From assembly GCF_000006405.1 (NCBI RefSeq), contig NW_003200491.1, positions 66,244 to 93,635 on the forward strand: DNA of 27,392 bases, in the 5' to 3' direction. Every line of letters starts with the position of its first letter. Position 1 is the first letter of the stretch. Position numbers and translations under genes: made by a program. Of this stretch, positions 1,874 through 26,470 are shown piece after piece. Source of the stretch: Perkinsus marinus ATCC 50983 (lineage: Eukaryota; Perkinsozoa; Perkinsida; Perkinsidae). The notes below the pieces were generated by a model, which did no database searches, was not told the origin of the DNA, and saw nothing but the letters and a program-made list of their open reading frames with translations.

Positions 1874-4800
1874 TCACATCAGATTGCTGACCTTCAAAAC
1901 CTTGTCAAGCTCGAGGCTATCAGCTACTGCATGACAAAACTCATATGTTCCCAACATGATAGCGCAGCCAGGGATAACCTACCCAACCTAATTTGTATCT
2001 TACAAGGAGTAACCTAAGATACCTTCAAGAGTCGAGGTCCAAGACCAACAGTGAATCCTCGAAGACGATACTCTTCGAAAATCGCCATCATCGCTGATCC
2101 AGTAGTGTGAATTCTAATGGAAAACATCAATAACCCTCCTACCGTTAAAAGCGCGCGCCCAGACGATCGATTACAAAGATACCCTCCTCTCCCTACGGCG
2201 AGCTCCTCATAAAATTGGCGATCGTCGTATAAAAAGATGCCGATTGACAACACGTCCATGAGGATCGAGTCACCGACCAGCTCGTTCCCACGCTACACAG
2301 AGCGACTCTTTCAATTCGAATAATCGATCATCTGGGCGCGCGCTAAATGTGTACTCACCGCTTAGCCACGTTAGTGTGGTGTCCACTACTACTACTAGTA
2401 GGACGAGTCGCTGTTTGTAATTGAGTTTTGACCATATCAAAGGGATGCGTCGCAGCAGCCGCGATAGTTCCGCAGACCGCACCATTTAGGAAGGAGAATC
2501 CGAAGGTTTCCATCCAAGTTACGGGAACGTTGGTCTGACGAAAGAAAAGACACTTTTCGTAACGCGTAAGAATATCAAGTTCATTATTATGATGGAGTTT
2601 TACGTCAAGTGGCGTAATACTATATATAAAAACCCCATATTCGCGGTGATATGCAGTAGTCGTGAAATATATTTTTCACTAGTATTTTTCATATCACTAG
2701 GGTAGTGAAACTCCAATATATATAGCATTATGACAATAATTATATATAATACAACCAATCAAAGCCATTGTGCAGTAGAGTATGATATGAAAGCTTGAAA
2801 TCATTGGAGATGATTGAGCGCATGAAAATACACTGAAGGGAACGGCCATTTCTTAATATCAATGCGAGCGTGTGTGATAAGCGATTTTCCAACAACTAAT
2901 GCGATTCAGCAGATGACCAAACTGTCATCAAATTCCTCCTCGGAAATATGAAAAATACAAAAGTTATATTGGAGTTTCACAACCCGTTTTACGTAAAGTG
3001 ACGTAAAACTCGGTGAAAAACGCGCGATATTTGCGGCGATATGCAGTAGTCGTAAAATATATTTTTTTCACTAGTGTTTTTCATATCACTAGGGTGGTGA
3101 AACTCCGATAAATCCTAAACAATAATATATCGTATAATAAAGAAGAAATACGAAGTTGAGCAATAATGATGTGACACTTTTGAGCAACTCGCGAACAGCG
3201 TTGGAATGTATGTTCCCTTTCCTCACCTGAGCTCGGGGGTCTCCCATCAATTATAGAAGTTTATATACAAACTTGGATAAAAATGTAGGGAATCCAAATT
3301 TCCTCAGAATTTTCATACTCTCACCAACACACGTAGTTGCATACTACCTTACGAGCAAACTCTATTGCTTCCGCAGAAAGAAAGCCTCAATACAAACATA
3401 CTCCTCACGAAAAGGAAACTCAGTTACCAGAATTAACGCGATAATCATCAAAGGGAGATTACGAAGAAAACGTTGGAGTTTCATAACCCGTTTTACTTGA
3501 AGTGGTGAAAAACGCGATATTCGCGGCTTGTAGTAGTCGTGAAATGTGTTGTTTTTCACTAGTGATTTTCATATCACTAGGGTGATGAAACTCCACTATA
3601 TAGCAAGAATATGTATGCACTACTGCGGGTTGAAGTAAACACACACAATCATCATACGTATAAAAGCGTATCGAGACAAAACATAGTATTATGAATATAC
3701 ACAATATTACGGGAAAAAATAAAAGCATATTTTTCCCATAATTTCCACGCTTCGTCCTTCCCAAAAACGACAGTGTACTATTTCTTATATACCATCACAA
3801 TACCTCAGCTTGTTTTTCAGCTAATTCCAAGAGTTCCTCATCATTAGCACTACGCGCTGCCCCTCGTCGCTCCACGTGGTCCGGCAAGAATATTTTCTTA
3901 TTGTACTCGTATAGCGACCAGTAGATCGCGGAAAATGGTAAATCACTGACAAAAAAAAATTTACAGGGATTTTTCCAACAATTTTTTCGGCGTTTTTTCC
4001 GACTATAATCAAAAAAATTCACATATTTTTACGAAATGTTATAACCGCACACGTGTGTACGCTCATTTTGAATTTATCATTAACCTTCAATGTGAGAAAA
4101 ATCGCTCAGATTTTTACAGTAAAAATTACAATTAGGAATAGAGTAACAAATAGAGTAACAAAAGAAAAGTAAAAAGTAACAAAACAAGTAAATAGAGTGG
4201 CTCAAAATATTCTTCCTACTGGTCAACTTTAAGTGGTCAATATTATGTCAATATTAATAATGACAGTATACAGTAACAGTATAATGTCAATATTAATAAT
4301 GATCAACGTGATAATCACAATCACTCGTTATACTCCATATCGCATATGAAGTTCGAGCAAACACCACTAATATTAATAAATTATTCTTACGAAAACACAT
4401 ATTTTTTTCGACCATGAAATTACTCAAAAAACAGCAAATATGATGAAGACTATCATCACCGTAGGCGTTGAGTTTACATATTTCTATTCTGGCAAATGTT
4501 GGCTTAATTCCTGCAGTTACCTTACGGTGAAAATCGGTGAAAACTCAGAATTTTATGCGCCAACCCAACCGCAAAAAGCGATCACACTGAATGGAGTTTC
4601 GCCCGTTTTGTGTAAAGTTACGTAAACCCGATGTTCGCGGTGATATGCAGTAGTCGCAAAATTTTACTAGTGTTTTTCATATCGCAGGTGAAACTCCAAT
4701 AGAAGAGTCGTGCGGCAGTCCAAAGACCTTTTAGTATGAATATTACAACTACGTTTGTTGATCAACGTCTGTCCAGACTGAAGATTTTTGCAGGACAGAA

Positions 4801-5703
4801 TGATTAGTAATAGTGAAATAGCCGGGATGGAACCCGAGACCTCCGGGTAGCCAACGATGCGCATTACGGTTATGCCAAATATACATGATATAAGTTCGTG
4901 TTCTGTACGAATAGACAAACTAACTAACGTATCACATGGTGTGATTCACATCCGGGTGAAGCCAAATCAAATGAAAATTTTAAAATATTTCTTATATTAT
5001 CCACCGTAAAAATTGGCAGAATATTACCGAACTAATGTGGGTAGCAAACCTCGCCAAAAACTAGAAAAAGAATCTTCGCGTAAAACTCGCTTCACAGTGG
5101 CCATTGCTCCCTCGCCCATACCGGTGGTGGCTTGTACACGCGTACGGAGGAATTCCACTGAAAGTGATACCATCCTTTCTCCAACTCACGATGGGAGTCG
5201 AGACTCACAAGGAGAGAATATAGTAACTGCAGTAGCTCTTGCTGCGGCACTCGCAATTCCATCGGGGACGCGTTCACGCCAGTGTTCATACAGAACGAAA
5301 AATACCTAAGAAGAGTATCTTAGGTTCCCGCAGGGAAGATTCAAAACAGGTCCGCTTGGAGAACAAAAGTTTGAATCGGATATGCTTACCCAATTAGATG
5401 GTATTTGATATACTAGACTGGTCATAGTTCCGTTCCACAGAGCTCGCCAACCATAAGCGTCTTTAATGTGTCGCATCACCTGCAGGCCACTTGTATTGAT
5501 CCGTTGATGATTCAAAGCTGGTGAAGCCTAAGGGGAAGGATATCTTAGGTTGGGTGCAAAAAGATTCAAAGTAGGTCCGATACCTGCCAATAGTTCTTGA
5601 CCACATCAAAGGGAGTGCATACTGCAGTAACAGCGACCGAGCCCATAGTAGAGGCCACTAAGGTGTACCGTAACGTCGCCTTCTCGCCGCTCGAGGCTGC
5701 CAT
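1874..5703 (-). CDS. Mitochondrial carrier protein, MTM1/SLC25A39-SLC25A40 type (8 exons, 332 aa)
   Basis: Exons in order of translation: 5584-5703, 5390-5527, 5209-5305, 5028-5157, 3804-3945, 2359-2534, 2023-2113, 1874-1978. All introns are GT-AG and the CDS sums to 999 bases. The product has the three repeats of the SLC25 family, each with its PX[DE]XX[KR] signature: TPFDVVKNYWQ (about aa 30-40), SPLEFLRTRVQ (about 117-127) and THPFDMVKTQLQ (about 238-249). The blocks RGLLPTLVRDLPFSAIYWSL and GFTVGLGPRLLK are typical of the MTM1/SLC25A39-40 branch. In other organisms these proteins are linked to glutathione import into mitochondria and to manganese/iron-sulfur homeostasis, so that role here is inference. 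It would sit in the mitochondrial inner membrane. The start is the first ATG before repeat 1. Introns 1, 2 and 7 are introner-like elements, intron 6 holds an inverted-repeat element, and introns 4 and 5 (over 1 kb each) hold MITE copies. Confidence 0.9.
1979..2022 (-). repeat. Introner-like element forming carrier intron 7 (44 bases, sense)
   Basis: The whole intron is the element. It starts GTATCTTAGGTT, continues with TGTAAGATACAAATTAGG and ends TAG. The element itself supplies the GT donor and lies in the sense orientation of the gene. Confidence 0.85.
2150..2344. repeat. Inverted-repeat element with 24-base ends inside carrier intron 6
   Basis: The ends at 2150-2173 and 2321-2344 are inverted repeats matching at 23 of 24 positions (AGCGCGCGCCCAG followed by an ATCGATTA end). 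It fills most of the 245-base intron 2114-2358. A single copy of the same end makes up most of intron 10 of the HAD-like gene (20857-20879), and a diverged one lies at about 18308-18330. It looks like a small MITE or another intron-forming element. Confidence 0.75.
2594..2714 (+). repeat. TGGAGTTTCA MITE-like element, copy A (carrier intron 5)
   Basis: About 120 bases bounded by the inverted ends GGAGTTT and GAAACTCC. The internal blocks ATATTCGCGG, GATATGCAGTAGTCGTGAAA and TTTTTCATATCACTAGGG are shared with the other copies. Confidence 0.75.
2971..3106 (+). repeat. TGGAGTTTCA MITE-like element, copy B (carrier intron 5)
   Basis: This is the most complete copy: inverted ends GGAGTTTCA and TGAAACTCC, the block CCCGTTTTACGT, and then the shared GATATGCAGTAGTCG core. 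Confidence 0.8.
3198..3345 (+). repeat. Interspersed ~150-base repeat family R3, diverged copy
   Basis: It shares the start GTTGGAATGTATGTTC, the block TTTCCTCA...CTCGGG and the end TCACCAACACACGTAGTT with the copies at 19531, 21380 and 22884. It lies in carrier intron 5. I see no coding capacity or terminal inverted repeats, so the transposition mechanism is unknown. Confidence 0.55.
3475..3594 (+). repeat. TGGAGTTTCA MITE-like element, copy C (carrier intron 5)
   Basis: Inverted ends GGAGTTTCA and TGAAACTCC. It is slightly deleted in the middle (GATATGCAG reduced to TTGTAG). Confidence 0.75.
4593..4697 (+). repeat. TGGAGTTTCA MITE-like element, copy D (carrier intron 4)
   Basis: A shortened copy with both ends (GGAGTTTC and GTGAAACTCC) and the core GGTGATATGCAGTAGTCG. 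Confidence 0.7.
4821..4876 (-). repeat. tRNA-derived sequence in carrier intron 4
   Basis: Read on the minus strand it ends in CTCGGGTTCCATCCCGGC, a T-arm/B-box (RNA polymerase III) sequence. The upstream half is too diverged for a cloverleaf, so it is a tRNA-derived repeat and not a working tRNA gene. Confidence 0.5.
5306..5389 (-). repeat. Introner-like element forming carrier intron 2 (84 bases, antisense)
   Basis: The 3' two thirds of the intron is the element in reverse orientation: CGGACCTGTTTTGAATCTT, a short spacer, then GAACCTAAGATAC and TTAG as acceptor. The first 30 or so bases are unique sequence with the GTAAG donor. Confidence 0.85.
5528..5583 (-). repeat. Introner-like element forming carrier intron 1 (56 bases, antisense)
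   Basis: The intron is little more than the element: GTAT donor, CGGACCTACTTTGAATCTT, spacer, CAACCTAAGATATCC and CCCCTTAG acceptor. Splicing it joins the TGGCAG codons to GCT in frame and gives a normal carrier repeat 1. Confidence 0.85.
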
Positions 5704-6603
5704 CAATCAAACTTAAGGCTCGTAGTACTAGTAACAATAAACTTGGATAAAATGCCCTTCGAACATACGACAAGCTAATATCGATTAGAATGGCGTGCGC
5801 TAAGTTAGTTCAGATTGTGCAGATATCTGAGCGAGGCCATTTCCGTTCTATGGGGGCGTATCTTAGGTTGCTCTAGGTAAGATACGGAATAGGTACGCTA
5901 ATATACCATGTTGTGCATGCGTGCATGGAATTCTCGTCCAATTTCATGCGATTGTTCACTTCTTTTTAAGTGACCTTTTAACGCAATGAGACACTCAGTC
6001 TCGTTTCTTGTTAGAAACTACCCGTCGTTTGTTCAGCAGCCACTTCTTGTTATTCGATATTCTACTGTACTCACCCACGCCCAATTGTCAGAGTAGATGA
6101 TACTTTCTTGAGAGGCCTTCAATGCAACACTTCGTTGAAATACTAACACAACAACTGTGGTTCACGCTTAGAGCTTCGTCATCTGCGCTTATCACAGTTC
6201 AGGTCAACCACTGTAACCATATAACTTTTTTGCTTTTCCTCATGTTATACTCAGTAGAGTTTCCCTTTCTAATAAGGCCAACCAAATGGCTAATTTTCAG
6301 TGTTGCATTTCTATCTTCCGCTCAACTGTATGAACGCCTGTCGTTCTCGATCAGGCACATCCAATGATGATGCGTCTACCAGAGTCGGGTCTCTCTACTT
6401 TGCATCGTCATTGCTACGCTGACTCTCCCTAGTGCTCCCGTTTATGGTCCCGTCATTCAAGTGTGTCTGATTGTCTACTCTAATGCTATGACTTACTATT
6501 ACTAATCCCCTCTTTTTCCTGCTCATGGGTGGTTGATTCTCGCGTTGTAAATGAGGTTGTCATCTTGGCGTTACATTTGTGTATAGGTGTTCTCTTCTCT
6601 AGC
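5704..6603. other. Divergent intergenic region with an introner-like copy
   Basis: It lies between the 5' ends of the minus-strand carrier and the plus-strand secreted-protein gene and must hold both promoters; no core-promoter motif is clear. An introner-like copy sits at 5858-5892. An open stretch at 6122-6367 (plus, 81 codons, hydrophobic, ATG start) has no recognisable features and is left unassigned. A TGTGCATGCGTGCATGG motif at about 5914 resembles one in an intron of the gene at 12873-14616. Confidence 0.5.
5858..5892 (+). repeat. Introner-like element outside any recognised CDS (35 bases)
   Basis: GTATCTTAGGTT, a spacer, then GTAAGATACGGAATAG: a complete GT...AG unit on the plus strand. 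If spliced, it would lie in a 5' leader, or in a small ORF starting at an ATG near 5790. That suggests an unrecognised transcribed exon upstream of the first secreted-protein gene. Confidence 0.6.
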
Positions 6604-7917
6604 ATGATGATCATCTACTGGCTACCCTGTCTCATCACGCTTGTCTCTATTCGTCACGCTCACTCTAGCGGTCCACCCCCTAACCAATATGACGATGTAG
6701 ATCTTGGTGAAGTTCAAATGCGGCACCCCGGAAAGGCCTCACGCGATCATCCTGAGTATGGGGGTAAGAAAACGCGGAGGTCATGGCGATCAGTTCTCAA
6801 TCGATTGAGTGGTAAACGAAGTAGCAAGGAAGTGCCAAATGAAGGTCACGATGCGGCCGTCCGTCGAGTTTCCGACAGACTCTCCGCTACCAGTCTGAGC
6901 CGAGGTGTCGACTCGGGGAATGACGGCATCGCTAGTGACGGTAAAAAGGCGAGATTCTCAAAGTTGAAAGGGTTTTTCAACGGCAAGGGGTCTCGGAAGA
7001 GTGGTGAGCTATTTGATCAATCCTCGTCCAGCACTGAACATTCCCGTGATGCTACTTCAACTACCCTTCGTTCTAGTCTGCCACATATGGTCACTACGGA
7101 GGAGTTGCAGAGAGGCCTTTCGACTCTAAATGAGGTTTCTGCTGAATCCACGATGGACTGGGATGCTGCGGATCGCACAACTCAAGGGATGGGTGATTCT
7201 CATGCCGATCTTCCCGCGGATGTCTATTGCAACTATCATAGTGGCCATGCTCTCTGCCTTGCAAAAATCCCGGACTCTGATTTTGTTGATATATTCCACC
7301 ACAACTTCGCAAAGAAGAGTACTAAGTCCTGCGGAGTGTCCACTTTCCCGAGCTTTGAGCCGGATGGTGAAGCCTTATCGAGGTTACCAGGAGAGAACGA
7401 AAAGGCTTGGGAGAAAGCGATGAAGCAATTGAAGGGGAAGAAGAGTTGGCAGGCTCCAGCCGACCAAGAGTTGTTGAACCAATTTAGACATCTAATATTC
7501 CACACTTGTGACATTGAAATAGAAGGGACATCTTTTGGCGTCACGGCTCTCTACATTAAACCTATGGAAGATCAGAAGCTCAGCGTGGCCTTCTTCACCG
7601 AACCGGAGAAGGTTGCTGTTGTTTGGGAATTTGAAAGACATGAACTTGTCGTCCCGGGCCATCAGAGAACTTACATTAGTATGGACCCGCCGTTCGAGGT
7701 TGAACTCGCACACAAACGGGCGAAGGTTACAGTAGCTGGAGAGCGAATCCAAGGCGTAGTTTTTACTCGTAAAAACATCTTCACGCTTCCGGGAGAATCT
7801 TATAGATCGAAGAATCAGATATTATGCTTTCGATTTTCATGGACTACGGAAGCAATTGCTGTCATGAAGTACGGGGAGAAATGGGCATTTATGATGAGCG
7901 AGAAGGAGACTACATGA
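6604..7917 (+). CDS. Predicted secreted protein, member 1 of a three-gene tandem family (437 aa, no introns)
   Basis: I do not recognise this family. The open frame reaches further upstream without an in-frame ATG. I chose the ATG at 6604 because it opens a good signal peptide (MMIIYWLPCLITLVSIRHAH) with likely cleavage after residue 20-22. Residues about 25-205 are polar, Ser/Arg/Lys-rich and probably disordered, with basic clusters such as RRSWRSVLNRLSGKRSSK and KARFSKLKGFFNGKGSRK. Residues about 205-437 form a conserved domain shared with the genes at 10324 and 11911: DVYCNYHSGHALC, DFVDIFHH, SC.V.TFPSF, FRHLI...CDIEIEGTSF, and near the C-terminus AVMKYGEKWAFM. Secretion or delivery into a host is a guess from the signal peptide. 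Codon use looks normal for a real gene. Confidence 0.85.
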   Translation: MMIIYWLPCLITLVSIRHAHSSGPPPNQYDDVDLGEVQMRHPGKASRDHPEYGGKKTRRSWRSVLNRLSGKRSSKEVPNEGHDAAVRRVSDRLSATSLSRGVDSGNDGIASDGKKARFSKLKGFFNGKGSRKSGELFDQSSSSTEHSRDATSTTLRSSLPHMVTTEELQRGLSTLNEVSAESTMDWDAADRTTQGMGDSHADLPADVYCNYHSGHALCLAKIPDSDFVDIFHHNFAKKSTKSCGVSTFPSFEPDGEALSRLPGENEKAWEKAMKQLKGKKSWQAPADQELLNQFRHLIFHTCDIEIEGTSFGVTALYIKPMEDQKLSVAFFTEPEKVAVVWEFERHELVVPGHQRTYISMDPPFEVELAHKRAKVTVAGERIQGVVFTRKNIFTLPGESYRSKNQILCFRFSWTTEAIAVMKYGEKWAFMMSEKETT

Positions 7918-11493: not shown

Positions 11494-11910
11494 CTGCACG
11501 TATGCTAATATGGCCACTCATGAGATGTTCTTCATTTGTTGTTGTTATCTGTTAGAATGACCATAATCTGTAGAGTTGATTATAACATCAATTCATCCCA
11601 CCAAGGTTAGAGGATAACTCTGCTTACCTCACTATATTATACGCACACGACTCAGGGTAGGAGTGTAAGAAACCTTCCCAACAGCCCAGCTATTGATCAT
11701 GCCATGTGATCGACTATCAATGATTTAAGCTACTGTACATCACTTGAGTATTGCTAAAGGCGAGCATCCATGAAAGCGAGACTGGACACGTCCAAGCAGT
11801 TTTCGAGCGCCCAACTTCCGGAACAATCACGCATTCTTCACTCTGTTGCAACGCGCAATTCCTCCACACTTCGAGCGAAATTCAATTCCCCTCAAGCTCT
11901 ACTCTCCAAG
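11494..11910. other. Spacer between secreted-protein members 2 and 3
   Basis: No gene or repeat was recognised. The frame of member 3 stays open back to an ATG at 11770, so the right 140 bases could code for an N-terminal extension, but that would bury the signal peptide. Confidence 0.5.
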
Positions 11911-16104: not shown

Positions 16105-17499
16105 TTAGGCGCTTCCATTCCGGACTTGACAGTCAACATCATCTGGAGAGAGCCTGAATTAAAAACAATGCACCTCCCAAGAATAGAACCCACAACCTCC
16201 CGGATACAATAACTCGGTTAAGCGCTCAACGACTCGACCACCTAGCAACATATTTTCACTCACTTCTGAATTCTCCCATCATCAACTCCAGTGATGCCTT
16301 CATCATCTGTTATAATCCTAAGACAATAACAACATGCTAAAGTCATCGCCACAATTTCCTTGCCGCTGCCCGGTTCAAACAGCAGTAACTTATACTCGTT
16401 TTCCACACATGAAAACTAAACCATTAAGTGAATCGATTATTTATCCTTCCAATTTTGAGAGTTCGAAGAATATCCAATTTCACTAACCTCATAAATGTAA
16501 TAACAATGTGAATCGGCTGATGGCGCTCAGAAGCGTTTTCCCAGTCCATAAATCTACTTCATGTTTTCAAAAACACGAGTTCACATAACTATGTTTCAAC
16601 TAGTGATAATTCAATCTTACTAATCGAGTACTACAAACAGATGTTCACTTTAGAAGTTATATTATGGTGAAGTTTCAACAATCTCGGATATTTACGAAGT
16701 AGAAATTCAAATCGAAATCGACTAAAATTGTGATCATCTTTTCAACTCATTCGCGAAAGAAAATTCCCTCAACGCTATAAATGAGTTCCGCGAAATCCAA
16801 TGATAAAAAAACTCGCGTATGAATTTTCTGATTTCTCTTCATTAAAAATATCAATCCGCAACTTACTCTATTTTCACAAACCTTTCCCTCCGATGACGAT
16901 GTCGTCCATCACCAGCTCGGCGCTTCTCAACCAACTTTCTATCCCTCATATTTGCCGATCTTGAAGATTCTCTGGAGACCGAGCTCGACCTAATATACAA
17001 CAAAAGATTCTTACGCACAGCGAAGAATATCTATCGTTTTTCACGGGGAAGCAAATTCTGAAACTATACATGTAAATGCTCATATTATAAATGTTTACCA
17101 AAACTTCTACAACTCGAATATTGCGATTTCAGTATAGTTTTCCGTGAAATTTTTCCCCATTTTTTCCATAAATTCCGATTCCCAACTCACTTATCACTCT
17201 CCAACTTGTGGACAGTTTGAATACCCGAATTGTGATGACGACGCTCAGCCAGAGGAAGATAAAACAGCGGCCTGGATAGGAGAATCTTAGGTTCACCACG
17301 GTAAGATACAAAACAGGTTACCCCATCTCGTCATCATCATCATCCTCTACAATCAACATTCTTCCACGGCAACTTGCATCATGTGAGTTCTAAAGATAAT
17401 CTTCGCTGTGCGATACTAAGATACTCCTTTCACCCTCACCTTATCTGGATTCCTAGGAAGCCCGTTCACTTGAGAATCAACAACCACAGCAATTGGCAT
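16105..17499 (-). CDS. Hypothetical protein, 7 exons, 177 aa (possibly the 3' half of a longer gene)
   Basis: Exons in order: 17440-17499, 17322-17389, 17191-17271, 16882-16989, 16488-16553, 16264-16365, 16105-16153; CDS 534 bases with GT-AG introns. No known family recognised. The product starts MPIAVVVDSQVNG, then has an acidic run (MLIVEDDDDDE), a Ser/Arg-rich basic middle (REKRRAGDG-like, HRHRRE), and a more hydrophobic end containing IVAMTLACCYCLRIITDDEG. There is no signal peptide. Intron 2 is an introner-like element in antisense, intron 1 mixes an introner piece with a CGCACAGCGAAGAT motif, and intron 6 is a tRNA-Leu/Ser-like sequence. Exon 1 can also be entered in frame from an upstream exon, so the ATG at 17499 may be internal and this gene may join the model at 18436-19323. 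Confidence 0.65.
16176..16243 (-). repeat. tRNA-Leu/Ser-like sequence in intron 6 of the 16105-17499 gene
   Basis: The minus strand shows GGTGGTCGAGTCGTTGAGCG (A-box/D-arm of Leu/Ser type) and GTGGGTTCTATTCTTGG (B box), filling the 110-base intron 16154-16263. The stems are degenerate. Confidence 0.6.
17272..17321 (-). repeat. Introner-like element forming intron 2 of the 16105-17499 gene (50 bases, antisense)
   Basis: GTAACCTGTTTTGTATCTTAC, spacer, GAACCTAAGATTC, CCAG. The intron has essentially no sequence outside the element, apart from the acceptor tract. Confidence 0.85.
17390..17439 (-). repeat. Composite introner-like intron (intron 1 of the 16105-17499 gene)
   Basis: A 50-base intron containing AGTATCTTAG and then CGCACAGCGAAGAT. 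The second motif recurs near 17018, 18990, 26335 and 26478, also in introns or spacers. Confidence 0.55.
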
Positions 17500-17640
17500 C
17501 TTTAAAGAAAATAAATGAAAACTTCCTATCACCAAAAGTATATATATATCATACCAAACGACCACTCATCGATTAATAGATACCCTTTTAATATGCGCAC
17601 GCGTGCAAAACATGCACGCCTTAAAAAATATGAAAATTCA

Positions 17641-17775
17641 CCTGTTGATGATGACGATAGGAAAATTTTGAGGAAATTTCGGGAAAATTTCTTATTGATT
17701 TCTGTACAATTCTACCCGAATTCATATGTCTTTCGAAACTCCCGAGGAAAGCGAACATATATTCCTCCAACACTG
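17641..17775 (-). repeat. Interspersed repeat family R3, minus-strand copy
   Basis: Read on the minus strand it begins GTTGGAGGAATATATGTTCG, continues CTTTCCTCGGGAGTTTCG and ATATGAATTCGGGTAGAATT, and ends near TCATCATCAACAG. Confidence 0.6.
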
Positions 17776-17929
17776 TACCCAATACCACACTTCAGCTTAG
17801 CCATCACAGGTTCGATCCTCGGCACCTGCATTTTTCCGCTACCAACTTCGCGAATTTATTGAAAATTCTCATCAACTATTCTGGTCGATGACAACGATAA
17901 ATTTATTTTTCATTTTTGAATACTCATAC

Positions 17930-18014: not shown

Positions 18015-18153
18015 CTGCCTACAGGTTATATAGATTTCAGACGATAATCGATCACGTGATCGATTTGTCCAAGTTCATAAATATATATATTCCACGCCGA
18101 GATGGAACTCGCGACCAATTATTTTAAGGAGAATCTTATGATTGCCACATAGG

Positions 18154-18188
18154 GTATCTTAGGTTCATGATGGTAAGATACAAAATAG
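18154..18188 (+). repeat. Introner-like element, complete plus-strand unit (35 bases)
   Basis: GTATCTTAGGTTCATGATG followed by GTAAGATACAAAATAG: donor and acceptor are both part of the element. If the surrounding gene is on the minus strand it lies antisense inside a larger intron. Confidence 0.75.
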
Positions 18189-18435
18189 GCCCAATTGAAG
18201 CCTCAACACAACATGTCAAAGATATCACCACGCACTTCAAAGAATCTTCATACTTCAACTACCTTCATCCTACCTCAAAGATTCCCCAATTACATGGTAA
18301 TGTAAAAAGCGCTCGCCCTCGTGATCGATTCAGAAACAGTAATTATTAATAATCTATATATAGCATGCTGCGGCAGTCCACCCACCCGAGTTCGATTCCC
18401 AGGGGACTAATTTTGCGACTTTTTTGCAGGGCGAT

Positions 18436-19323
18436 TTATACACCAAAAATTGCCAAAGTCACTCAGCAGCGTTAGAAATAATGGAAAACAGAACGATATA
18501 AAATCGATCAGCTGATCGATATAATCGATCGACCGATCGATCAGTAATTCATTACCTAAATAATCTTGCTCTCTTACCAAATCTTGCATTTCCTCAACGC
18601 TAAGCTTACCCTATGAATTGGAATTAGAAGATTCCTTACGACCATTCACCGAGCCAACTAGTATCCTGAAAAATGATATCCAAGGTTCAACGATGCAAGA
18701 TTCAAAATAGGTCCGCAAACATACCACTTACTCGAGCCGCCTAGTAGTAGTACAACATCGACTCGAACGAGGCGTATCTTTTATTCTGCGGACCACCAAT
18801 GCGGGCAAACGGAATATCTCCGACGACCTACATACAGCAGCACTGTTATAAAAATGGTTAACATGTACCAAAATTACAGCGGAGCGATGCAACCCTCATC
18901 ATCATCCATCACAATTACCGTCATCCTAGTTGACATCAGTGCTCGTTGTGAATCTATCTACACATACAACATAAAAGATTCCACAACGCACAGCGAAGAT
19001 TTTTCCAAACATAAAATCTTATAACAATATAATCTATATTATAATCATACCACAACATACTCTACAATCTGAACAACTATTCAAAGTAATTTAACTCTCA
19101 CATATACACAGCCCACCAAGGTTCGATCCCCACACCATGCATTTTATAACAATATTTCCTATCAACATGTTGATGTCCACAATACTACTATACATATATA
19201 TTTAAATATAAATAAATATCATTCGATCGAGGTTCGATTCCCACACCCTACATTTAATGATGACCTCCTTTTCTTAACTTCAGCAATAGGAAGGCGTGGC
19301 ACAAACGATGGTCGGGTGGACAT
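18436..19323 (-). CDS. Hypothetical protein, 6 coding exons, 99 aa; 3' end uncertain
   Basis: Coding exons: 19265-19323 (exon begins 19345), 18878-18925, 18732-18827, 18650-18665, 18556-18610, 18436-18461; CDS 300 bases. The product begins MSTRPSFVPRLPIAEVKKRR, then has MTVIVMDDDEG, a basic segment (VVRRIKDTPRSSR) and LSVEEMQDLVREQDYL. It resembles the neighbouring 16105-17499 product in layout: PIAV/PIAE start, hydrophobic-IV-acidic run followed by PL, then RR. Introns fall at similar places, so the two may be relatives or halves of one gene. Intron 3 is an introner-like element; intron 5 holds two ATCGATC palindromes. The 16-base exon 4 and the final exon are the weak points. Two further introner-type introns lie in its 5' leader. 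Confidence 0.5.
18666..18731 (-). repeat. Introner-like element in intron 3 of the 18436-19323 model (antisense)
   Basis: GTAAGTGG donor, GCGGACCTATTTTGAATCTT, spacer, TTGAACCTTGGATATC, TTTTTCAG. Confidence 0.8.
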
Positions 19324-19345
19324 CAAAGAGAGAAAGAGAACAAAT

Positions 19346-19389
19346 CTGGACCTATTTTGAATCTTACACATCCAACCTCAAGATACCAC
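19346..19389 (-). repeat. Introner-like element as a 5' leader intron (sense)
   Basis: GTATCTTGAGGTTGG, spacer, GTAAGATTCAAAATAGG, TCCAG. It immediately precedes the exon that carries the start codon at 19323. Confidence 0.75.
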
Positions 19390-19432
19390 CATCAAGTGAA
19401 TGGATATAAAATATGATGAAAATTATCCCCAC

Positions 19433-19503
19433 CTGGAAAACGATACAACAAATATCCAAGGTTCAACCATGTAAGATCCAAAACAGGCCCAAAAGAGGAC
19501 CAC
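19433..19503 (-). repeat. Introner-like element as a second 5' leader intron (antisense)
   Basis: GGGCCTGTTTTGGATCTTACA, then GTTGAACCTTGGATAT, TTTTCCAG. Together with the previous copy it defines a 43-base non-coding exon (19390-19432); both leader introns belong to the same family, in opposite orientations. Confidence 0.7.
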
Positions 19504-20248
19504 AAAACTATTCGCCACTTATCTAAACGACTACCAACATTGGAGAAATATATGTTCGCTTTCCTCAGCTGCTGACCTCAGGAGTTTCCAAAGCAAATTA
19601 TAAAATTTTACATACGAATTCGAATACGAGTGTACAGAAACCAACAATAATTTCCCAAATATTTCCTCGAAATTTCCATATCGTCATCACCAACACATGT
19701 AGTTGATGACCATGTGCATATTTTTCTACTCACAAATAACAACCTCCAAAAAAAATATTTTTCATAAAATTTTTTAGAGAACTCAACACAATTCATTTTT
19801 CAAGTAACGGTTTGTTAGCGTGCAGTAAGCCTACATTCTACCCTACCCCCACACATATCTCTTATCGATCACCTGATCGATTTCATCCATACCAAAACCG
19901 TCTCAATACGAAAACATGCACATGGTCAACTACATATAACAAAAAAATTGGTTTTTTTACACTACTACGCAAAGTCATTTATATTCATACCGTAATTTCG
20001 GAAACTCCATAGTAAAAAAGTGTACAAATTTCCGTAAAATTTTACTTTACATCAACAAATGAATTTCCAGATTTGAAAATTGTTAAAAACCTGAGCGAAA
20101 CCGTTACACAAATTTATCATTTTTTTATATTTTTTTACAAACTCATCCGGAGTACTTCTATGAACGTTTTGCCAATCGATTCACGTTCAAGCTCATGATG
20201 ATACCAATATTAGATCTTCAAACTGTCAAATTTAAATATGATTACCTT
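19504..20248. other. Intergenic stretch upstream of the leader exons and downstream of the HAD-like gene
   Basis: It holds an R3 repeat copy and an ATCGATCACCTGATCGAT palindrome at 19863-19883. The rest is AT-rich with no gene seen. The promoter of the 18436-19323 model and the terminator of the HAD-like gene presumably lie here. Confidence 0.5.
19531..19704 (+). repeat. Interspersed repeat family R3, near-full copy
   Basis: Shares long near-identical blocks with the copy at 21380-21551: CTACCAACATTGGAGAAATA, ATGTTCGCTTTCCTCAGCTG, AAAATTTTACATACGAATTC and CACCAACACATGTAGTT. Confidence 0.85.
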
Positions 20249-23200
20249 TTACGAATTTTCGCATTCCTGAATCGCTTCGCTCCGCCCAATTTCAACTGTT
20301 GGAGTTGCCTCGTTCGTCAACAACTCCAAGTCGAGAGCTCCATCATGCTTGACAATGTGCTCTGAAAATATATCAAAAATAATTATTCAAATATCATCAA
20401 GAATAATCGATCACGTAATCGATTATAGTATTATTACTAAATTCTACAATTTTTCGAAAATTTTCGAAAATACATAAATTTTATCGCCGTTATTGGAAAA
20501 GGGATTCTCATAAAATTTCACCAGTTTTACGTGAAGTGGCGTAAAACTCCGTGAGAAAGCCGATATTCGCAGCGATATGCAGTAGTCGTGAAATATGTTT
20601 TTCATATCACTAGGGTGATGAAACTCCAAAATTTTGATTTCAACTCTTCAAAATATTAATCGATCACGTGATCGATTATCTCTAAATATATATTCTAAAT
20701 AAAACTCAATAATTTTACTTAGGTCCCCGGTTCGATTCCCAGCCCCTCCCTTTCTACCCAATGAATCCGTCAAAAGTTGTATTTCATTTCCCAACTGCGT
20801 CAAGTCCGGCTTCAATAGAAACTTCACAGACTTCATCCTACCACAGCCATTTACCAAATCGATCATCTGGGCGCGCGCTTTTTGCTCACCAGCTGTTCGC
20901 CGTCCTCTGAGTCGGAATATTTCCCAAAGTTACTCTCATCAATGCTTCCCTTTCGTGTGGGGAATCCCCAATCGAAATCACATTGCGCCAAGACCTAAAA
21001 AAGATTGAACATACGTGTTTGAAAAAAGTAAACATAAAACTCTTCAACTGTTTGCTAATTGCGGAGCGAGCGTAGCATATACCGCAACAACAGGCACTTT
21101 CGCATTGTGCGTGCGTGCAGAATTATTCTGGCTCAACTACGAGGCTGTCAGATATGTCAAACGACTCCTCTATATGCGAAAAAATCGGAAAATTAGATTA
21201 TGCGAACAACTCGAAGAGATATGCACGAAAAACTTTAATGATGGAAAAATGTCCCACCCGAGAATCGAACCGGGCTGGACCTATGTAAACTTCATTGATT
21301 GAGTCCATGGACGTGGACTCAGTGAGCTCCTTCGTCACGAGGGCCTAGTTTTATAATAAAACTAAACATCCAATCACGACTACCAACATTGGAGAAATAT
21401 ATGTTCGCTTTCCTCAGCTGCTCAGCTCAGGATTTTCCAAAGCTGATTATAAAATTTTACATACGAATTCGAATACAAGTGTATAGAAATCAATTAAAAA
21501 TTTCACCAAAATTTCCTCATAATTTCAATATTATCACCAACACATGTAGTTCACCATATGCATATGCTCCCGCATAACATTATAATGTAATGCATCAAGC
21601 TGTGCGCAACTAGCATATATATAAAAGATATCTTTCACATCTATATATCACCATGCGTAAACTAAGATACCTCCCAAAAAATCTTCCCTGTGCGCAGCTA
21701 GTATATATATAAAAGATATCTTTCACATCTATATATCACCATGCGTAAACTAAGATACCTCCTCGAAAAATCTTCCCTGTGCGCAACTAGCATATATATA
21801 AAAGATATCTTTCACATCTATATATCACCATGCGTAAACTAAGATACTTCCCAAAAAATCTTCCCTGTGCGCAACTAGCATATATATAGAAGATATCTTT
21901 CACATCTATATATCACCATGCGTAAACTAAGATACCTCCCAAAAATCTTCCCGGTGCGTAACTAGCATATATATAAAAGATATCTTTCACATCTATATGT
22001 CACCCTGGGTAACCTAAGATACCTCCCTTTAAAAATCTTCCCTGTGCGCAACTAGCATATATATAAAAGATATCTTTCACATCTATATATCACCATGCGT
22101 AAACTAAGATACTTCCCAAAAAATCTTCCCTGTGCGTAACTAGCATATATATAGAAGATATCTTTCACATCTATATATCACCATGCGTAAACTAAGATAC
22201 CTCCCTTTAAAAATCTTCCCTGTGCGCAACTAGCATATATATAAAAGATATCTTTCACATCTATATATCACCATGCGTAAACTAAGATACTTCCCAAAAA
22301 ATCTTCCCTGTGCGCAACTAGCATATATATAGAAGATATCTTTCACATCTATATATCACCATGCGTAAACTAAGATACCTCCCAAAAATCTTCCCGGTGC
22401 GTAACTAGCATATATATAAAAGATATCTTTCACATCTATATATCACCATGCGTAAACTAAGATACCTCCCTTTAAAAATCTTCCCTGTGCGCAACTAGCA
22501 TATATATAAAAGATATCTTTCACATCTATATATCACCATGCGTAAACTAAGATACCTCCTTAAAAATCTTCCCTGTGCGCGGCGGCCGCCGCCACCACCA
22601 CGACTACCTGTGCATAACAGAGCTCTGCATCCAAAAGTTCGATGGTTGTTCGATTAAATGCGAATTAACTCCACTCATAGGCGTAGCACCTGTGTAAGCA
22701 AATCGATCACGTGATCGATTTGGATACTCACATCGTTGACCATCAATGATATCTCTGAATGCATGAGCTTTCCATCCCGCCGGACTTTTAACGCCTTTAT
22801 GCTCAAACGCACCTGCCCAAAAATTATACAAAAATTTTGTTGCAAAAAATTACTCGAAATTTTTGCGAATTTTTCCAATTCTCAACAGTGTTGGAATATA
22901 TGTTCGGTTTCCTCAACTGCTCAACTCGGGAGTTTCCCGATTTCCTGTAAAAGTGTATAAAAACCAACGGAAATGTCCTTCTTATTCTCATCAACATACA
23001 TGGGAGTTTTACAACCCGTTTTACGTGAAGTGGCGTAAAACTCCGTGAAAAACGCGATATTCGCGGCGATATGCACTAGTCGTGAAATGTGTTTTTCATA
23101 TCAATCAGACGAGAAACATTTTTCCACACTGCATTTGAAATCAAATCTTGCAATCTTGCTCCCACTTGCATTTCCTCAACGCCACATATCCTACTTCGTG

Positions 23201-25172
23201 CGCTGCAAATTTTCACCGCTAAATTTTGAAGCAGCAGTTCTAATGATGGTAGCCACTTTCGGCAAGACAACTCAAACCATCCTTCCTGAGAAGAAAGGGC
23301 ACAAATCATTAAAATATTTTACTTCCAAATGTGGGGAAATATTCACATATGTTGATAACGACAACTAGGAAATTCTCGAGCTGTTTCTTGGTAACTTCCA
23401 GGGTTGTTCTTTTCAGATGAAAATTATATAACATATTTTCCAACACTGATTTCACGCAACTTCAAAATATGCAAATAAGAAAAAGCTACCAAAATATTTT
23501 TGAGAAAAAAATTTTCATAAAAATGTAATTCTATATAACCAATACGATGAATAACTTTCCAGAATCATCACCACATACATTCCAGAATGCTAAAATCCGA
23601 ATCACAATTTTCCCGCATTTTCTGCCCACAATTTCGGCAAAAAATACGAGTAAAAGAAATCGAAGATTTTTATAAATGACATAATTGATAGCCTTCCGAG
23701 TTGATATTCATTTCTTCGGCAAAATATTTTACACGCAGAAAATGCAAAAAAACCGATAACGAATGTGACTCTGTTGATTTCACAGTATATATAGATTTCA
23801 ATAAAAAAATATAAGATTTGATATGATAATCGATCACACGATCGATTTATTGATGAATAGTGTTAAAATGAGTCTGTCGTGGAAGCATGCCGGGATCGAA
23901 CCCACGACCTTTCCCTCCCCACCTGAGCGTTAGTGACTATAACCACTTTACCTAACGAAGCGGCCTTCCGAACCATCTTCACGGCGAGCTCGGCCAACTC
24001 CGATAGCGCATCGATGAATTTCTCGGGTACGAATGGATCGCAAACCTCATTGGAAAAAATCCATATCAACAAAAAAATTGTGAAATTATCAAATTTTACG
24101 GTAAAAAGTTTCGGTAAAAATTCACCAAACAAATACCAGCGAAAATTATGGGAGATATCATCCATCCGAAATTGGAAAAAATCACAAAAGTAATTATCAA
24201 AAGAGCCAAATAATAATTTTTCCGTTTCACATTTCTTACAATGATTTTTTTCATAAAAAAAGGAAAAACTTCGCTCCGCCTTTTTTATTACATTCAAACC
24301 GTTCACTTTTGCCCAAGTTGTCGGACAGATGGTATCATCCCAATCGAAAATCAGCAAAGTTTGAACTCTCGCTGGCGTCGCTGAGAATCTCCCATCCTTT
24401 CTGGTGTTTATTGCATTACCTTACTCGGAGTCGTCAATAAAGATTCTTTCAAGGGCGTCGGGGTGACACCAATAGTAGTGCTGAAAAAATGCAACATGCC
24501 GGGATCGAATGCGTAGCTTTCTCCCCACCTCCCATTAGAAATATCCCCCTCCTTTTCATCATCGGCCTCCGCTGGTGTCAACAACACCGTGAACATAGAA
24601 TGGTCGTGATTTTCTATAGGATTCAATTCACCCTCTTCTCGAGAAGATCCTTTCGGTGTCATCATAACGCCACTTCCAACATGTGTAAATGTAGCCGTCG
24701 GAAAACCTTGAAAATCTCAAAAGAGTGAATTCGATCAAATCGATCGGATGATCGATTTATCATATTGTGGAGATTTCACAATCAAAAGACGTAAAAACTA
24801 TTTGGAAAAAGAATTTAATAAGTAATAAAGTAATTAAGCAAGCTTAAAAACCTGAAAACTCAAATCGATCAGTTGATCGATTAAATCGATCAGTTGATCG
24901 ATTAAATCGATCACTCCAATTTCCCATACTACTATTCACATGTGAATGACCTCGGCGACTTAAAACGTCGCGACTTTCGTTTTCCGCGTCCCCATCAAAA
25001 TCCAACTCTAGACATCTGCGGTTACCTAAATCGATCACGTGATCGATTATCCAATATCTTAGATTCAGAATAGGTTACCTTTAGTCTGAATCGGAGTTCC
25101 CTCTTGAAGATCTTCCACTGAAATCGGTTCCTCATTTTCGGCGGCTTTTTCAGTCGAAGGAGTGGCAAACAT
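20249..25172 (-). CDS. HAD-superfamily phosphatase-like protein (12 exons, 400 aa)
   Basis: Exons in order: 25079-25172, 24915-25025, 24529-24706, 24425-24480, 24292-24380, 23923-24045, 23195-23285, 22732-22812, 22608-22689, 20890-20994, 20758-20837, 20249-20361; CDS 1203 bases. The four HAD motifs appear in order and each falls in a different exon: I, LLIFDWDDTICPTTW (nucleophile Asp and Asp+2); II, VVIVTNAQ (Thr), followed by EGWFELSCRKWLPSL; III, the Lys in SPAGWKAHAFRDI; IV, NVISIGDSPHEREAL (acidic pair). The first 150 or so residues are polar with no known domain. Related proteins with FDWDDT...WVELSC occur widely in alveolates and stramenopiles; this is from memory, and their substrates are unknown. 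An in-frame TAA directly precedes the ATG. The exon before motif IV (CATPMSG...) is less certain. Eleven introns carry introner, palindrome, tRNA-like, MITE, R3 and satellite sequences. Confidence 0.85.
20514..20627 (+). repeat. TGGAGTTTCA MITE-like element, copy E (HAD gene intron 11)
   Basis: The right end GATGAAACTCC and the core GCGATATGCAGTAGTCGTGA are intact; the left end is diverged (AAAATTTCACC). Confidence 0.7.
20838..20889 (-). repeat. GCGCGCGCCCAG-type repeat forming HAD gene intron 10 (52 bases)
   Basis: The intron reads GTGAGCAAAA, then AGCGCGCGCCCAGATGATCG, ATTTG, and an acceptor GTGGTAG. The repeat matches the terminal repeats of the element in carrier intron 6. Here only one end is present. 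Confidence 0.75.
21252..21282 (-). repeat. tRNA-like B-box in HAD gene intron 9
   Basis: The minus strand reads AGCCCGGTTCGATTCTCGGG, a good T-arm/B-box. The 5' half of a tRNA is not evident. Confidence 0.5.
21380..21551 (+). repeat. Interspersed repeat family R3, near-full copy (HAD gene intron 9)
   Basis: Nearly the same as the copy at 19531-19704 over its first 110 bases and its last 20. Confidence 0.85.
21601..22580. repeat. Satellite: 11 tandem units of 87-90 bases inside HAD gene intron 9
   Basis: Units start (TGTGCGCAAC or close) at 21601, 21689, 21778, 21866, 21953, 22043, 22131, 22221, 22309, 22396 and 22486, with a broken start at 22574. Each holds TATATATAAAAGATATCTTT, CACATCTATATATCACC, CTAAGATACCTCCC and AAATCTTCCC. 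Unit lengths 88-87-90-88 occur twice (from 21778 and from 22221) with shared variants, so a four-unit block was duplicated. The CTAAGATAC and AATCTT pieces match the introner core, and one unit (about 22011) has the fuller AACCTAAGATAC. Confidence 0.97.
22690..22731 (-). repeat. Palindrome-type intron (HAD gene intron 8, 42 bases)
   Basis: GTGAGTATCC, then AAATCGATCACGTGATCGAT, then TTGCTTACACAG. Half of this minimal intron is the perfect palindrome. Confidence 0.85.
22884..23002 (+). repeat. Interspersed repeat family R3, shortened copy (HAD gene intron 7)
   Basis: Starts CAACAGTGTTGGAATATATG and TTCGGTTTCCTCAACTGCTC and ends CATCAACATACATG, directly abutting MITE copy F. Confidence 0.65.
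23003..23104 (+). repeat. TGGAGTTTCA MITE-like element, copy F, truncated (HAD gene intron 7)
   Basis: Has the left end GGAGTTTTACAACCCG and the core GCGATATGCACTAGTCGTGA, but lacks the CACTAGGG...GAAACTCC right end. Confidence 0.7.
23885..23922 (-). repeat. tRNA-like element starting exactly at the donor of HAD gene intron 6
   Basis: The intron begins GTGGGGAGGGAAAGGTCGTG and continues GGGTTCGATCCCGGCATG (B box). The same sequence, slightly degraded, begins intron 3 of this gene. Confidence 0.7.
24481..24528 (-). repeat. tRNA-like element as a complete 48-base intron (HAD gene intron 3)
   Basis: GTGGGGAGAAAG, then CGCATTCGATCCCGGCATG, then TTGCATTTTTTCAG. AG precedes the GT in the exon, as at intron 6. 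The 48 bases are stop-free and divisible by three, so an unspliced form would also be translatable (16 extra residues). Confidence 0.7.
24862..24913. repeat. Tandem ATCGATC palindromes in HAD gene intron 2
   Basis: Two adjacent 22-base units AAATCGATCAGTTGATCGAT(TA) plus a third half unit, starting at the donor of the 208-base intron 24707-24914. A further variant with centre GGATG is at 24738-24759. Confidence 0.85.
25026..25078 (-). repeat. Introner-plus-palindrome intron with flanking 8-base direct repeat (HAD gene intron 1)
   Basis: A 53-base intron: GTAACCTATTCTGAATCTAAG, then AATCGATCACGTGATCGATT and TAG. The plus-strand octamer GGTTACCT occurs at 25073-25080 and again at 25020-25027, exactly one intron length apart, as a target-site duplication would. 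Confidence 0.8.
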
Positions 25173-25357
25173 TTAAATGGAAATCAATCAATACTCTAAC
25201 AAAATCGATCGTCTGATCGATTACATCATAGAAATGAAAGAAAATTCATCGTTGTTTTCCACGTCGGAAATTTCTCATAAAAACCCAGAATTTTACCCAA
25301 AAGTATACACAAAATATTTTTGGTGTGAATAAATTCCCAAGAAGATGACGATGCTAC

Positions 25358-26470
25358 TTAATCCATCAATGATTCCTTAGTAGTGAAATTGGTCCATCCA
25401 TATCGATCACGTGATCGATTTCACACCGTCTCCTCGACAAAACCTCCCAAAGACGATTTTACAATTCTTGATCTTGGTACATACCCCAACCTATTTTGAA
25501 TCTTACCAAGCCAACCTAAGATATTTATCACTCATGCATAATCGTTGATACTATCGCACTGAATTGAATCAACCAAATCACAAAAAAACGAAGAAATGAT
25601 GGAAAAACTCCAAATAATTCGGATTGCCGGAAAAAAATCGTTTTAATCGATGATAACAATAGAAAAAACGAAAAAAATACCAGAAAAATCACAATGCTAA
25701 AAACAATCAAAATTTCCTCCAAAAATGCCCTCACCACAGTTCGAACCCGGAGCCTTTCGACTACCTCAATTTTCCCATTTTCCTCAGCCGCTGCTGAGTT
25801 GGTGAATGCCCCCAGGACTTGCGAAAAAAACCTTAGTAGTTTTATACAAACATGTAGTCAACCTCACTAATAAAGTTTATTTATAATTTTTAATCAGATT
25901 CATATTCTTCCGATGAATTCCCTAATACTCATTACTCTTTTTATGGAAAAATAAAACGGCAAATTTTATTAAACTCATTCCCGAGACCTTTTTATGGTAG
26001 GATAAATGTGTCCAACCAAACTTCCCCCTGGGAAAACGATGATTCGAAAAACTAAGCTAAATCGAATGATATAAAAAATCACATGAAAATTTCTATCACC
26101 GGTTCGAAATAGACATTAATACCAAACATTTCACCATCATGAAGTTCTACTATGTGTTTCGTTTCCGGATGGTCTTTTACCTGACCTAAACCGTATCTTA
26201 CCTTCCCAACCTCAAGATATCATATGTCTTTGATGAGCTCGGTCGAGGATAGATGAAAATCTCTCTGAAGAAATTTACGTTGAACGCGACGAATTTCTGG
26301 GCTTTTGGTATTGATCTTTCGTAAATTATTCGCTGTGCGTAAAGATTCATTCCAGGCCCAGTAAGATTCAAATCGTCTATCACGTGTTATTCATAAATTA
26401 GTTTACAACGCGCTCAAACTGAGAAGATATCTTCCACGAGAGCAGAAACCATTGGAGTGTTTGAGGACAT
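25358..26470 (-). CDS. Small hypothetical protein, 7 exons, 107 aa
   Basis: Exons in order: 26420-26470, 26279-26332, 26100-26180, 25765-25793, 25532-25558, 25427-25490, 25358-25375; CDS 324 bases. No known family recognised. It begins MSSNTPMVSALVEDIFS, then RIIYERSIPKAQKFVAFN, VKDHPETKHIVELHDGE, FGINVYFEP, a helix-like AIVSTIMHELGYVPRSR, and ends GGFVEETESLMD. There is no signal peptide or membrane span. Its stop lies only 185 bases from the ATG of the HAD-like gene, both on the minus strand. An alternative third-to-last exon (25992-26027) would end the protein early with GEVWLDTFILP. Intron 5 is an introner-like element, intron 2 contains another, intron 6 a palindrome, and intron 4 a tRNA B-box. 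Confidence 0.6.
25491..25531 (-). repeat. Introner-like element forming intron 5 of the 25358-26470 gene (41 bases, sense)
   Basis: GTGATAAATATCTTAGGTTGG followed by CTTGGTAAGATTCAAAATAG: almost nothing but the element, ending in its own AATAG acceptor. Confidence 0.85.
25738..25764 (-). repeat. tRNA-like B-box at the donor side of intron 4 of the 25358-26470 gene
   Basis: The intron starts GTAGTCGAAAGGCTCCGGGT and continues TCGAACTGTGG; CCGGGTTCGAACTG is a B-box. Compare the similar placing in HAD gene introns 3 and 6. Confidence 0.5.
26181..26278 (-). repeat. Intron 2 of the 25358-26470 gene, with a sense introner-like unit
   Basis: The 98-base intron ends with ATATCTTGAGGTTGG, spacer, GTAAGATACGGTTTAG, followed by GTCAG, which is the acceptor used in the model. 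Confidence 0.65.

What the first reader, a model, noticed from the sequence alone, without database searches (positions are those of the whole stretch)
1979..25531. Introner-like family: whole short introns made of one repeated element, used in both orientations
At least ten short introns in five separate gene models are built from one element with TATCTTAGGTT at one end and GTAAGATNCAAAATAG at the other. Sense copies: 1979-2022, 19346-19389, 25491-25531. Antisense copies: 5306-5389, 5528-5583, 17272-17321, 18666-18731, 19433-19503, 25026-25078. Stand-alone units: 5858-5892, 18154-18188. In sense the element supplies a GTATCTT donor and an AATAG acceptor. In antisense it supplies a GTAACCT-like donor and a CCTAAG...TAG acceptor. 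Removing each one restores a good reading frame, including in the conserved carrier. Introners that seed new introns are known from several protists; I do not know whether this one has been described.
Basis: partly seen in the sequence, partly recalled or inferred. Interest (0 to 1): 0.88.

Follow-up and report, generated by a model that had tools for sequence, protein, structure and literature searches.

The report
Tiny repeated introns in an oyster parasite
A short repeated DNA unit scattered through the genome of an oyster parasite makes up most of several tiny introns in ordinary genes, in either direction, much like intron-making elements already known from other protists.

Summary
The repeat is real and genome-wide: ATCTTAGGTT-N9-AAGATNCAAAAYAG occurs 502 times at up to 3 mismatches, against 1 for the reversed pattern, nearly always with a 9-nt spacer (258 against 14 with 8 nt, up to 2 mismatches). 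The genome is Perkinsus marinus by protein match. Seven unit introns (3 sense, 4 antisense, four genes) are supported by protein alignments that run through the splice junctions. They are 41-84 nt, median 56; seven short unit-free introns in three of these genes are 42-51 nt, so the ~40-nt unit is most of the intron. Against: 4 of 9 window introns lack coding support; only 16 of 43 sampled units pass a splice test, against 10% of random places; no target-site duplication signal; no presence/absence difference in the aligned parts of 7 haplotype or duplicate pairs. Best reading: an old introner-like family, which I did not find described for Perkinsus in five literature searches. That the copies created introns by insertion is inferred, not seen.

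The parts
1979..2022 (-). Intron of the carrier gene made of the unit in sense: donor GTATCTT, acceptor TTGGGTAG 9 nt past the core (profile hit 1986-2021)
   Evidence: Spliced product LLK^VIPGCAIMLGTYE equals annotated P. marinus protein P0122 there; Mito_carr match runs through the junction; profile hit
5306..5389 (-). 84-nt intron of the carrier gene with the unit in antisense (profile hit 5316-5354 on +)
   Evidence: QIPSNW^VFFVLYEHW; Pfam match and P0122 run through the junction
5528..5583 (-). 56-nt intron of the carrier gene with the unit in antisense (profile hit 5541-5579 on +)
   Evidence: DVVKNYWQ^ASPALNHQ; Pfam match and P0122 run through the junction
1874..5703 (-). Mitochondrial carrier gene (SLC25 type) holding three unit introns
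   Evidence: Joined exons 98% identical over 100% of the query to P. marinus ATCC 50983 protein P0122, 89% over 98% to P. olseni P0123; gene ends read by eye
17272..17321 (-). Likely intron, unit in antisense (profile hit 17284-17319 on +)
   Evidence: Open coding-like flanks in phase 2, 66 and 81 nt; profile hit; no homology test
25026..25078 (-). Likely intron with a degenerate antisense unit and a GATCACGTGATC palindrome
   Evidence: Frame GTPIQTK^GNRRCLELDFDGD open in phase 1; not found by profile R1
18666..18731 (-). Antisense unit with GTAAGT donor and TTTTCAG acceptor; core carries the variant ATCCAAGGTT; intron status unsupported
   Evidence: Profile hit 18683-18715 on +; coding flanks not supported
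19346..19389 (-). Sense unit, intron status unsupported
   Evidence: Profile hit 19348-19384; no coding support
19433..19503 (-). Antisense unit, intron status unsupported
   Evidence: Profile hit 19459-19490 on +; no coding support
25489..25531 (-). Sense unit with an 8-nt spacer, intron status unsupported
   Evidence: Profile hit 25489-25523; 8-nt spacer; no coding support
5858..5896 (+). Stand-alone unit upstream of the carrier start codon
   Evidence: Profile hit; weak splice score 0.8 (as L018:2044)
18154..18192 (+). Stand-alone unit
   Evidence: Profile hit; no spliced frame found (as L019:2373)
27177..27215 (+).
   Evidence: Profile hit, 20.5 bits; no spliced frame found
26183..26222 (-). 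Further degenerate unit
   Evidence: Member of repeat family D17; not tested further

Best explanation
This is an introner-like family of Perkinsus marinus. A repeat of about 40 nt (GTATCTTAGGTT-N9-AAGATNCAAAAYAGGTCCG) has been copied to hundreds of places, and in at least seven cases it is itself most of a tiny spliceosomal intron. In sense the donor is a GT 2-8 nt before the core (GTATCTT, GTGAGAATCTT, GTAGAGGTATCTT) and the acceptor is AAAATAG at the core's end or an AG 9-22 nt on. In antisense a GT 9-40 nt before the core is the donor, and the core's AACCTAAGAT is followed 11-15 nt on by a pyrimidine-rich AG; CCTAAG may act there as branch site, and in one case (L003) it seems to be the acceptor itself. 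Shown: the family, its fixed geometry, both orientations, and protein alignments through seven junctions. Inferred: spread by copying and insertion into exons, and the branch-site role.
For: Copy number 502 against 1 for the reversed pattern, 240 and 262 on the two strands. Junctions: queuine tRNA-ribosyltransferase (TGT) fragment aligned to the solved enzyme through both junctions, E 6.7e-45; kinase through the junction, E 4.7e-20; SPF45-like domain through the junction, E 7.1e-08; carrier through three junctions and identical there to the annotated P. marinus protein. In the TGT gene (L016) two units in opposite orientation form two introns separated by a 40-codon exon. Unit introns are 41, 44, 52, 56, 61, 62, 84 nt. 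Short unit-free introns of the kinase, TGT and carrier genes are 42, 42, 46, 49, 51 nt and 47, 48 (counted by eye), so a ~40-nt guest in such an intron would give over 80 nt, which fits only the 84-nt case. Splice-like setting in 16 of 43 sampled units against 272 of 2673 random places, Fisher p 3e-6.
Against: No presence/absence difference in the aligned parts of 7 pairs (5 between contigs, 2 duplicates within a contig). No target-site duplication: best of 2380 offset/length combinations has uncorrected p 1.7e-4. 27 of 43 sampled units fail the splice test at threshold 10, though that test is crude: it misses L003 and gives the wrong borders for window 5389-5306. The same genes also hold longer unit-free introns (109, 202, 245, 1082, 1269 nt), so short hosts were not the only possible ones. 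No RNA reads were available.
Confidence: 0.7

Rival explanations
1. A short dispersed repeat (such as a MITE remnant) that lies anywhere in non-coding DNA and is only passively present in introns; it creates no introns.
For: 27 of 43 sampled units fail the splice test at threshold 10; 4 of 9 window cases have no coding support. Antisense acceptors lie outside the core in 3 of 4 proven cases. No empty sites found.
Against: Six of the seven proven unit introns are 41-62 nt, too short for a 40-nt guest in one of the 42-51 nt introns of the same genes. Splice-like settings are 3.7-fold enriched.
Confidence: 0.18
2. The unit is a bipartite functional signal (bound by a protein or snRNP) with two conserved arms at a fixed distance, kept by selection in some introns and outside genes.
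For: Spacer 9 nt in 258 against 8 nt in 14. In 9 haplotype pairs the arms differ at 3 of 198 sites and the spacer at 9 of 81, Fisher p 0.001.
Against: In the same 9 pairs the 60 flanking bases differ at 13 of 540 places (6 of these in one pair shifted by an indel), so the arms are not clearly slower than their surroundings; it is the spacer that is fast. Units were found by their arms, which biases the arm count downwards. The unit-free introns of the same genes do without it.
Confidence: 0.08
3. Hairpin-dependent introner as described for Amoebophrya, with inverted repeats joining the exon ends.
For: ATCTTA/TAAGAT arms can pair; that hairpin is in the best fold of 4 of 5 sense introns tested.
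Against: It is in the best fold of only 1 of 5 antisense introns tested; z-scores of the ten introns range from +0.71 to -3.24. The ATCCAAGG subfamily (window 18678, 19454; L006) breaks two pairs without compensation (by eye). The seven proven introns have GT-AG borders.
Confidence: 0.03

Closest known systems
Introners in general (Gozashti et al. 2022, PMC9860276; abstract, first part of the results and passages read)
   Same: Families of similar introns at unrelated positions; the authors also looked for opposite-orientation insertion; median lengths from 30 nt; copy numbers 5 to over 2,000; many families lack TSDs or TIRs; splice sites may be carried or recruited.
   Different: Here a variable 9-nt centre lies between conserved arms, and splice sites lie at variable distance from the unit. 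Perkinsus occurs 0 times in that text; its supplement was not read.
Amoebophrya introner elements (Farhat et al. 2021, PMC7789003; passages and section 10 read)
   Same: Alveolate on the dinoflagellate side; repeated introns with inverted repeats.
   Different: Those are a subset of introns with non-canonical borders (these average 120 and 240 nt in the two strains), with 3-5 nt direct repeats at the borders and a hairpin; a similar layout was seen in 1% and 15% of canonical introns. Here borders are GT-AG, introns 41-84 nt, with no direct-repeat signal and no consistent hairpin.
Introner-like elements of fungi (PMC4457414; listing and start of abstract only)
   Same: Dispersed repeated introns; fungal introners are said to lack TSDs and TIRs (passage of PMC9860276).
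   Different: Not compared by sequence.

Membership tests
Introner | Similar sequence forms introns at unrelated positions in several genes | tested here: met
   Seven introns supported by alignments through the junctions, in four genes; 502 copies genome-wide
Introner | Similarity reaches close to both splice sites | tested here: inconclusive
   In the seven proven introns the 33-nt core lies 2-40 nt from the donor, and the acceptor lies between 2 nt before and 22 nt after the core's end (for L003 the acceptor is 2 nt before the core's end)
Introner | Segments are removed from mRNA | not testable with these tools
   No RNA reads; indirect support from protein alignments and an annotated protein
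Introner | Introns were gained by insertion (empty sites in relatives) | tested here: inconclusive
   No empty site in the aligned parts of 7 pairs; no outgroup genome held
DNA transposon (MITE) type introner | Target-site duplications | tested here: not met
   45 units; old copies could have lost them
DNA transposon (MITE) type introner | Terminal inverted repeats | tested here: inconclusive
   ATCTT/AAGAT arms exist but the conserved block runs about 14 nt past the 3' arm
Amoebophrya-type hairpin introner | Mostly non-canonical borders, border direct repeats and a hairpin | tested here: not met
   GT-AG borders in all seven proven introns; no direct-repeat signal; hairpin in 5 of 10 folds

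The most novel reading that the evidence does not exclude
The unit is a mobile, two-armed intron signal with strictly fixed geometry: two conserved arms 9 nt apart hold what the spliceosome or a bound protein needs in either orientation, while the spacer is free. Such a portable minimal intron, kept long after insertion by selection on its arms, would be a new way for an introner to persist.
Probability: 0.12. Interest if true: 0.8.

Novelty: new member of a known kind. Interest (0 to 1): 0.6.

Why it matters
Introners are a leading explanation for bursts of intron gain. Perkinsus is on the sister branch of the dinoflagellates, and I found no report of introners there (open-licence papers only, lists capped). 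A unit of about 40 nt that makes introns in both orientations would be near the lower end of known introner lengths (median lengths from 30 nt, PMC9860276), and since P. olseni has public gene models the gain of each intron could be dated by comparing species.

Tried and rejected
Organism by 18S rRNA (RF01960) gave no answer three times; the spliced-leader pattern and protein hits were used instead. Origin of the unit from the SL RNA: not settled. The pattern asked for GT after the leader and also for a T 22 bases on, so its single hit (unlike the unit) does not show what follows the leader elsewhere. A tRNA T-arm or B-box origin was considered by eye and dropped. Known RNA family: none in the window at gathering scores. 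Virus or prokaryote source: 0 exact matches in viral contigs and genome contigs (the tool says near-identical genomes may be left out). A protein search with a joined TGT fragment listed 120 of 7998 hits with no Perkinsus among the names shown; the length limit excludes many full-length enzymes.

Support not counted: L025 (M16-like) and L009 (PDZ-like) matches lie on one side of the junction. Of 10 spliced models given to Pfam, 4 had a match through the junction or junctions, 2 a one-sided match and 4 none; of these 4, L003 was then supported. In one search three intron measurements failed by a bad search word; one search measured one of them (46 nt), and two (47 and 48 nt) were counted by eye; the repeat-laden fifth kinase intron was not delimited. 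Three C69 stretches fetched as presumed partners of C52 were not homologous. One search stopped on a BLAST parameter error and was repeated. Of 60 units found in the loci, 45 were kept after dropping allelic or duplicate loci, 43 with enough flank. The codon model was trained on eight ORFs only. Flanking direct repeats of 6 nt or more within 40 nt: 21 of 45 against 14.2 expected from local controls, but 4 against 5.5 at 7 nt or more, and no clear excess within 16-24 nt. One of the 24 rows typed for the profile R1 was wrongly composed and equals no copy in the outputs; the profile is therefore slightly off.

Full report
In the sense direction the core is ATCTTAGGTT, nine variable bases, AAGATNCAAAAYAG. 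Over 45 units kept of 60 found in the fetched loci, the conserved block runs from GT just before the core (G in 33, T in 37) to about GTCCG after it, with a weak tail to about position 48; the base after AG is G in 45 of 45 although the pattern did not ask for it. Genome-wide there are 43 exact copies, 258 with up to 2 mismatches and 502 with up to 3, on both strands alike, against 1 for the reversed pattern in each of the last two searches. Counts include both haplotypes in places, since contigs C105 and C206 are diverged copies of one region. The spacer is 9 nt in nearly all: 258 against 14 with 8 nt at up to 2 mismatches. The window is unusually rich: 10 copies against 0.25 expected.

What organism it is. 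The P. marinus spliced-leader exon is ACCGTAGCCATCTTGGCTCAAG (PMC9399869, passages read). A 20-base pattern of it matches the genome 78 times within one mismatch, 38 exactly, against 0 for the reversed pattern. The spliced carrier protein from the window matches a protein annotated for Perkinsus marinus ATCC 50983 at 98% over 100%, and one of P. olseni at 89% over 98%. I take the genome to be P. marinus.

Are the units introns? Seven cases rest on homology. The carrier gene (minus strand, about 5703-1874) has three: 5583-5528 and 5389-5306 with the unit in antisense and 2022-1979 in sense. The joined protein is identical at all three junctions to the annotated P. marinus protein, and the P. 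olseni protein P0123 aligns there without gaps; Pfam Mito_carr matches run through the junctions. In L016 a queuine tRNA-ribosyltransferase (TGT) gene has an antisense unit intron of 62 nt and a sense unit intron of 61 nt, separated by a 40-codon exon; the joined fragment aligns through both junctions to the solved enzyme at E 6.7e-45. In L008 a kinase reads KAVDW^YSLG through a 41-nt sense intron (E 4.7e-20). In L003 an SPF45-like domain reads through a 52-nt antisense intron (E 7.1e-08). All seven have GT-AG borders. P0122 is an annotated protein; I did not see what evidence its gene model used.

Is the unit the intron, or a guest in it? The seven introns are 41, 44, 52, 56, 61, 62 and 84 nt. 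In the kinase, TGT and carrier genes I could delimit seven short introns without the unit: 42, 42, 46, 49 and 51 nt and 47 and 48 nt (counted by eye). Five longer introns of these genes are 109, 202, 245, 1082 and 1269 nt; none of the ten introns scanned holds the core within 3 mismatches, of which four are short and five are these longer ones measured (nine in all by script, the others by eye). A 40-nt guest in a short intron would give over 80 nt, which fits only one of the seven unit introns. This is the main reason for preferring creation over late insertion.

How general is it? An automated test (GT and AG near the unit, open flanks of at least 90 nt, no open frame through the unit, codon score at least 10) is passed by 16 of 43 units and by 272 of 2673 random places in the same loci, p 3e-6; at score 15 the figures are 13 of 43 and 151 of 2673, at score 20 they are 5 of 43 and 84 of 2673. 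So units are enriched in splice-like places but most do not pass. Some failures are true introns that the crude test misses (L003, and the carrier intron 5389-5306); others may lie in long introns, untranslated parts or between genes.

How it may work. In the proven sense introns the donor GT lies 2, 8 and 6 nt before the core (carrier GTATCTT, kinase GTAGAGGTATCTT, TGT GTGAGAATCTT) and the acceptor 9, 0 and 22 nt after it. In the proven antisense introns the donor lies 9, 40, 14 and 21 nt before the core; in three the acceptor is an AG 14, 11 and 15 nt past it, after a pyrimidine-rich stretch, so that CCTAAG is a candidate branch site; in L003 CCTAAG seems to be the acceptor itself. These roles are inferred from position. 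RNA folding gives the arm hairpin in 4 of 5 sense and 1 of 5 antisense introns, with z-scores from +0.71 to -3.24. The subfamily ATCCAAGG (window 18678, 19454; L006) breaks the hairpin without compensation, so the hairpin is not likely to be needed.

How it may have spread. Target-site duplications were sought at 2380 offset/length combinations (best uncorrected p 1.7e-4) and by flank comparison with local controls; none stood out clearly, apart from 21 of 45 units with a shared 6-mer within 40 nt where 14.2 are expected. In the aligned parts of 7 haplotype or duplicate pairs no indel of 18 nt or more holds a unit; the insertions are older than these splits, or losses are rare. In 9 haplotype pairs in the window the arms differ at 3 of 198 sites, the spacer at 9 of 81 (p 0.001) and the 60 flanking bases at 13 of 540, 6 of these in one pair shifted by an indel. 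So the spacer changes faster than both arms and flanks, while the arms are not clearly slower than the flanks; units are also recognised by their arms. A variable spacer of fixed length is not what simple copying of one source element would leave, and remains the oddest feature.

What is known. Gozashti et al. 2022 (PMC9860276; abstract, first part of the results and passages read) report introners in 175 genomes, with and without TSDs and TIRs, with median lengths from 30 nt, more often in aquatic species. Farhat et al. 2021 (PMC7789003; passages and section 10 read) describe introners in Amoebophrya with hairpins, direct repeats and mostly non-canonical borders. Five searches of the open-licence library on Perkinsus, introns and introners gave no report of such a family; I saw titles and starts of abstracts, and the lists were capped at 20 of 33, 20 of 1,590, 15 of 38, 30 of 31 and 20 of 30 papers. 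Supplementary tables were not read, so a listing there cannot be excluded.

Verdict. The family is beyond doubt and its intron status is well founded for seven introns and plausible for more. Introner-like is the best filing, with the gain step inferred. It is a new member of a known kind, with an unusual fixed-spacer architecture.

Noticed in passing
window 17400+, 18999-, 17026-, 26490-; L022:358+: A second short motif, ATCTTCGCTGTGCG or close to it, recurs (11 contexts listed, some in the tandem array); in L022 it sits in a stretch that by eye looks like an intron ending TTTTCAG. Possibly a second introner-like family.
   Followed up: partly
window 21600-22580: Tandem array of an 88-nt unit (11.1 copies) that carries both ATCTTCCCTGTGCG and AAACTAAGATAC, resembling parts of both short repeats.
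   Followed up: no
window 18043-25420: 13 copies of the palindrome AATCGATCACGTGATCGATT and variants, one inside the stretch 25026-25078.
   Followed up: no
window, approximately 2587-2721, 2965-3113, 3469-3601, 4590-4705, 20503-20634, 22997-23103, 26923-27020: MITE-like repeat of over 100 nt with GGAGTTTCA/TGAAACTCC ends (ends judged by eye).
   Followed up: no
G000 genome-wide: 38 exact copies of a 20-base spliced-leader core, several in pairs about 5-6 kb apart; they may be copies made from trans-spliced RNA. What follows the leader was not settled.
   Followed up: partly
window 6714-7914, 10327-11490, 11910-12768: Three neighbouring long ORFs that look alike by eye; a search with the second gave only the window's own protein at E 1e-3.
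   Followed up: partly
L008 (kinase) and L016 (TGT) large introns; window 17634-17770, 19535-19701, 21384-21551: A longer repeat, judged by eye at 150-200 nt, shared by large introns of unrelated genes and by the window.
   Followed up: no
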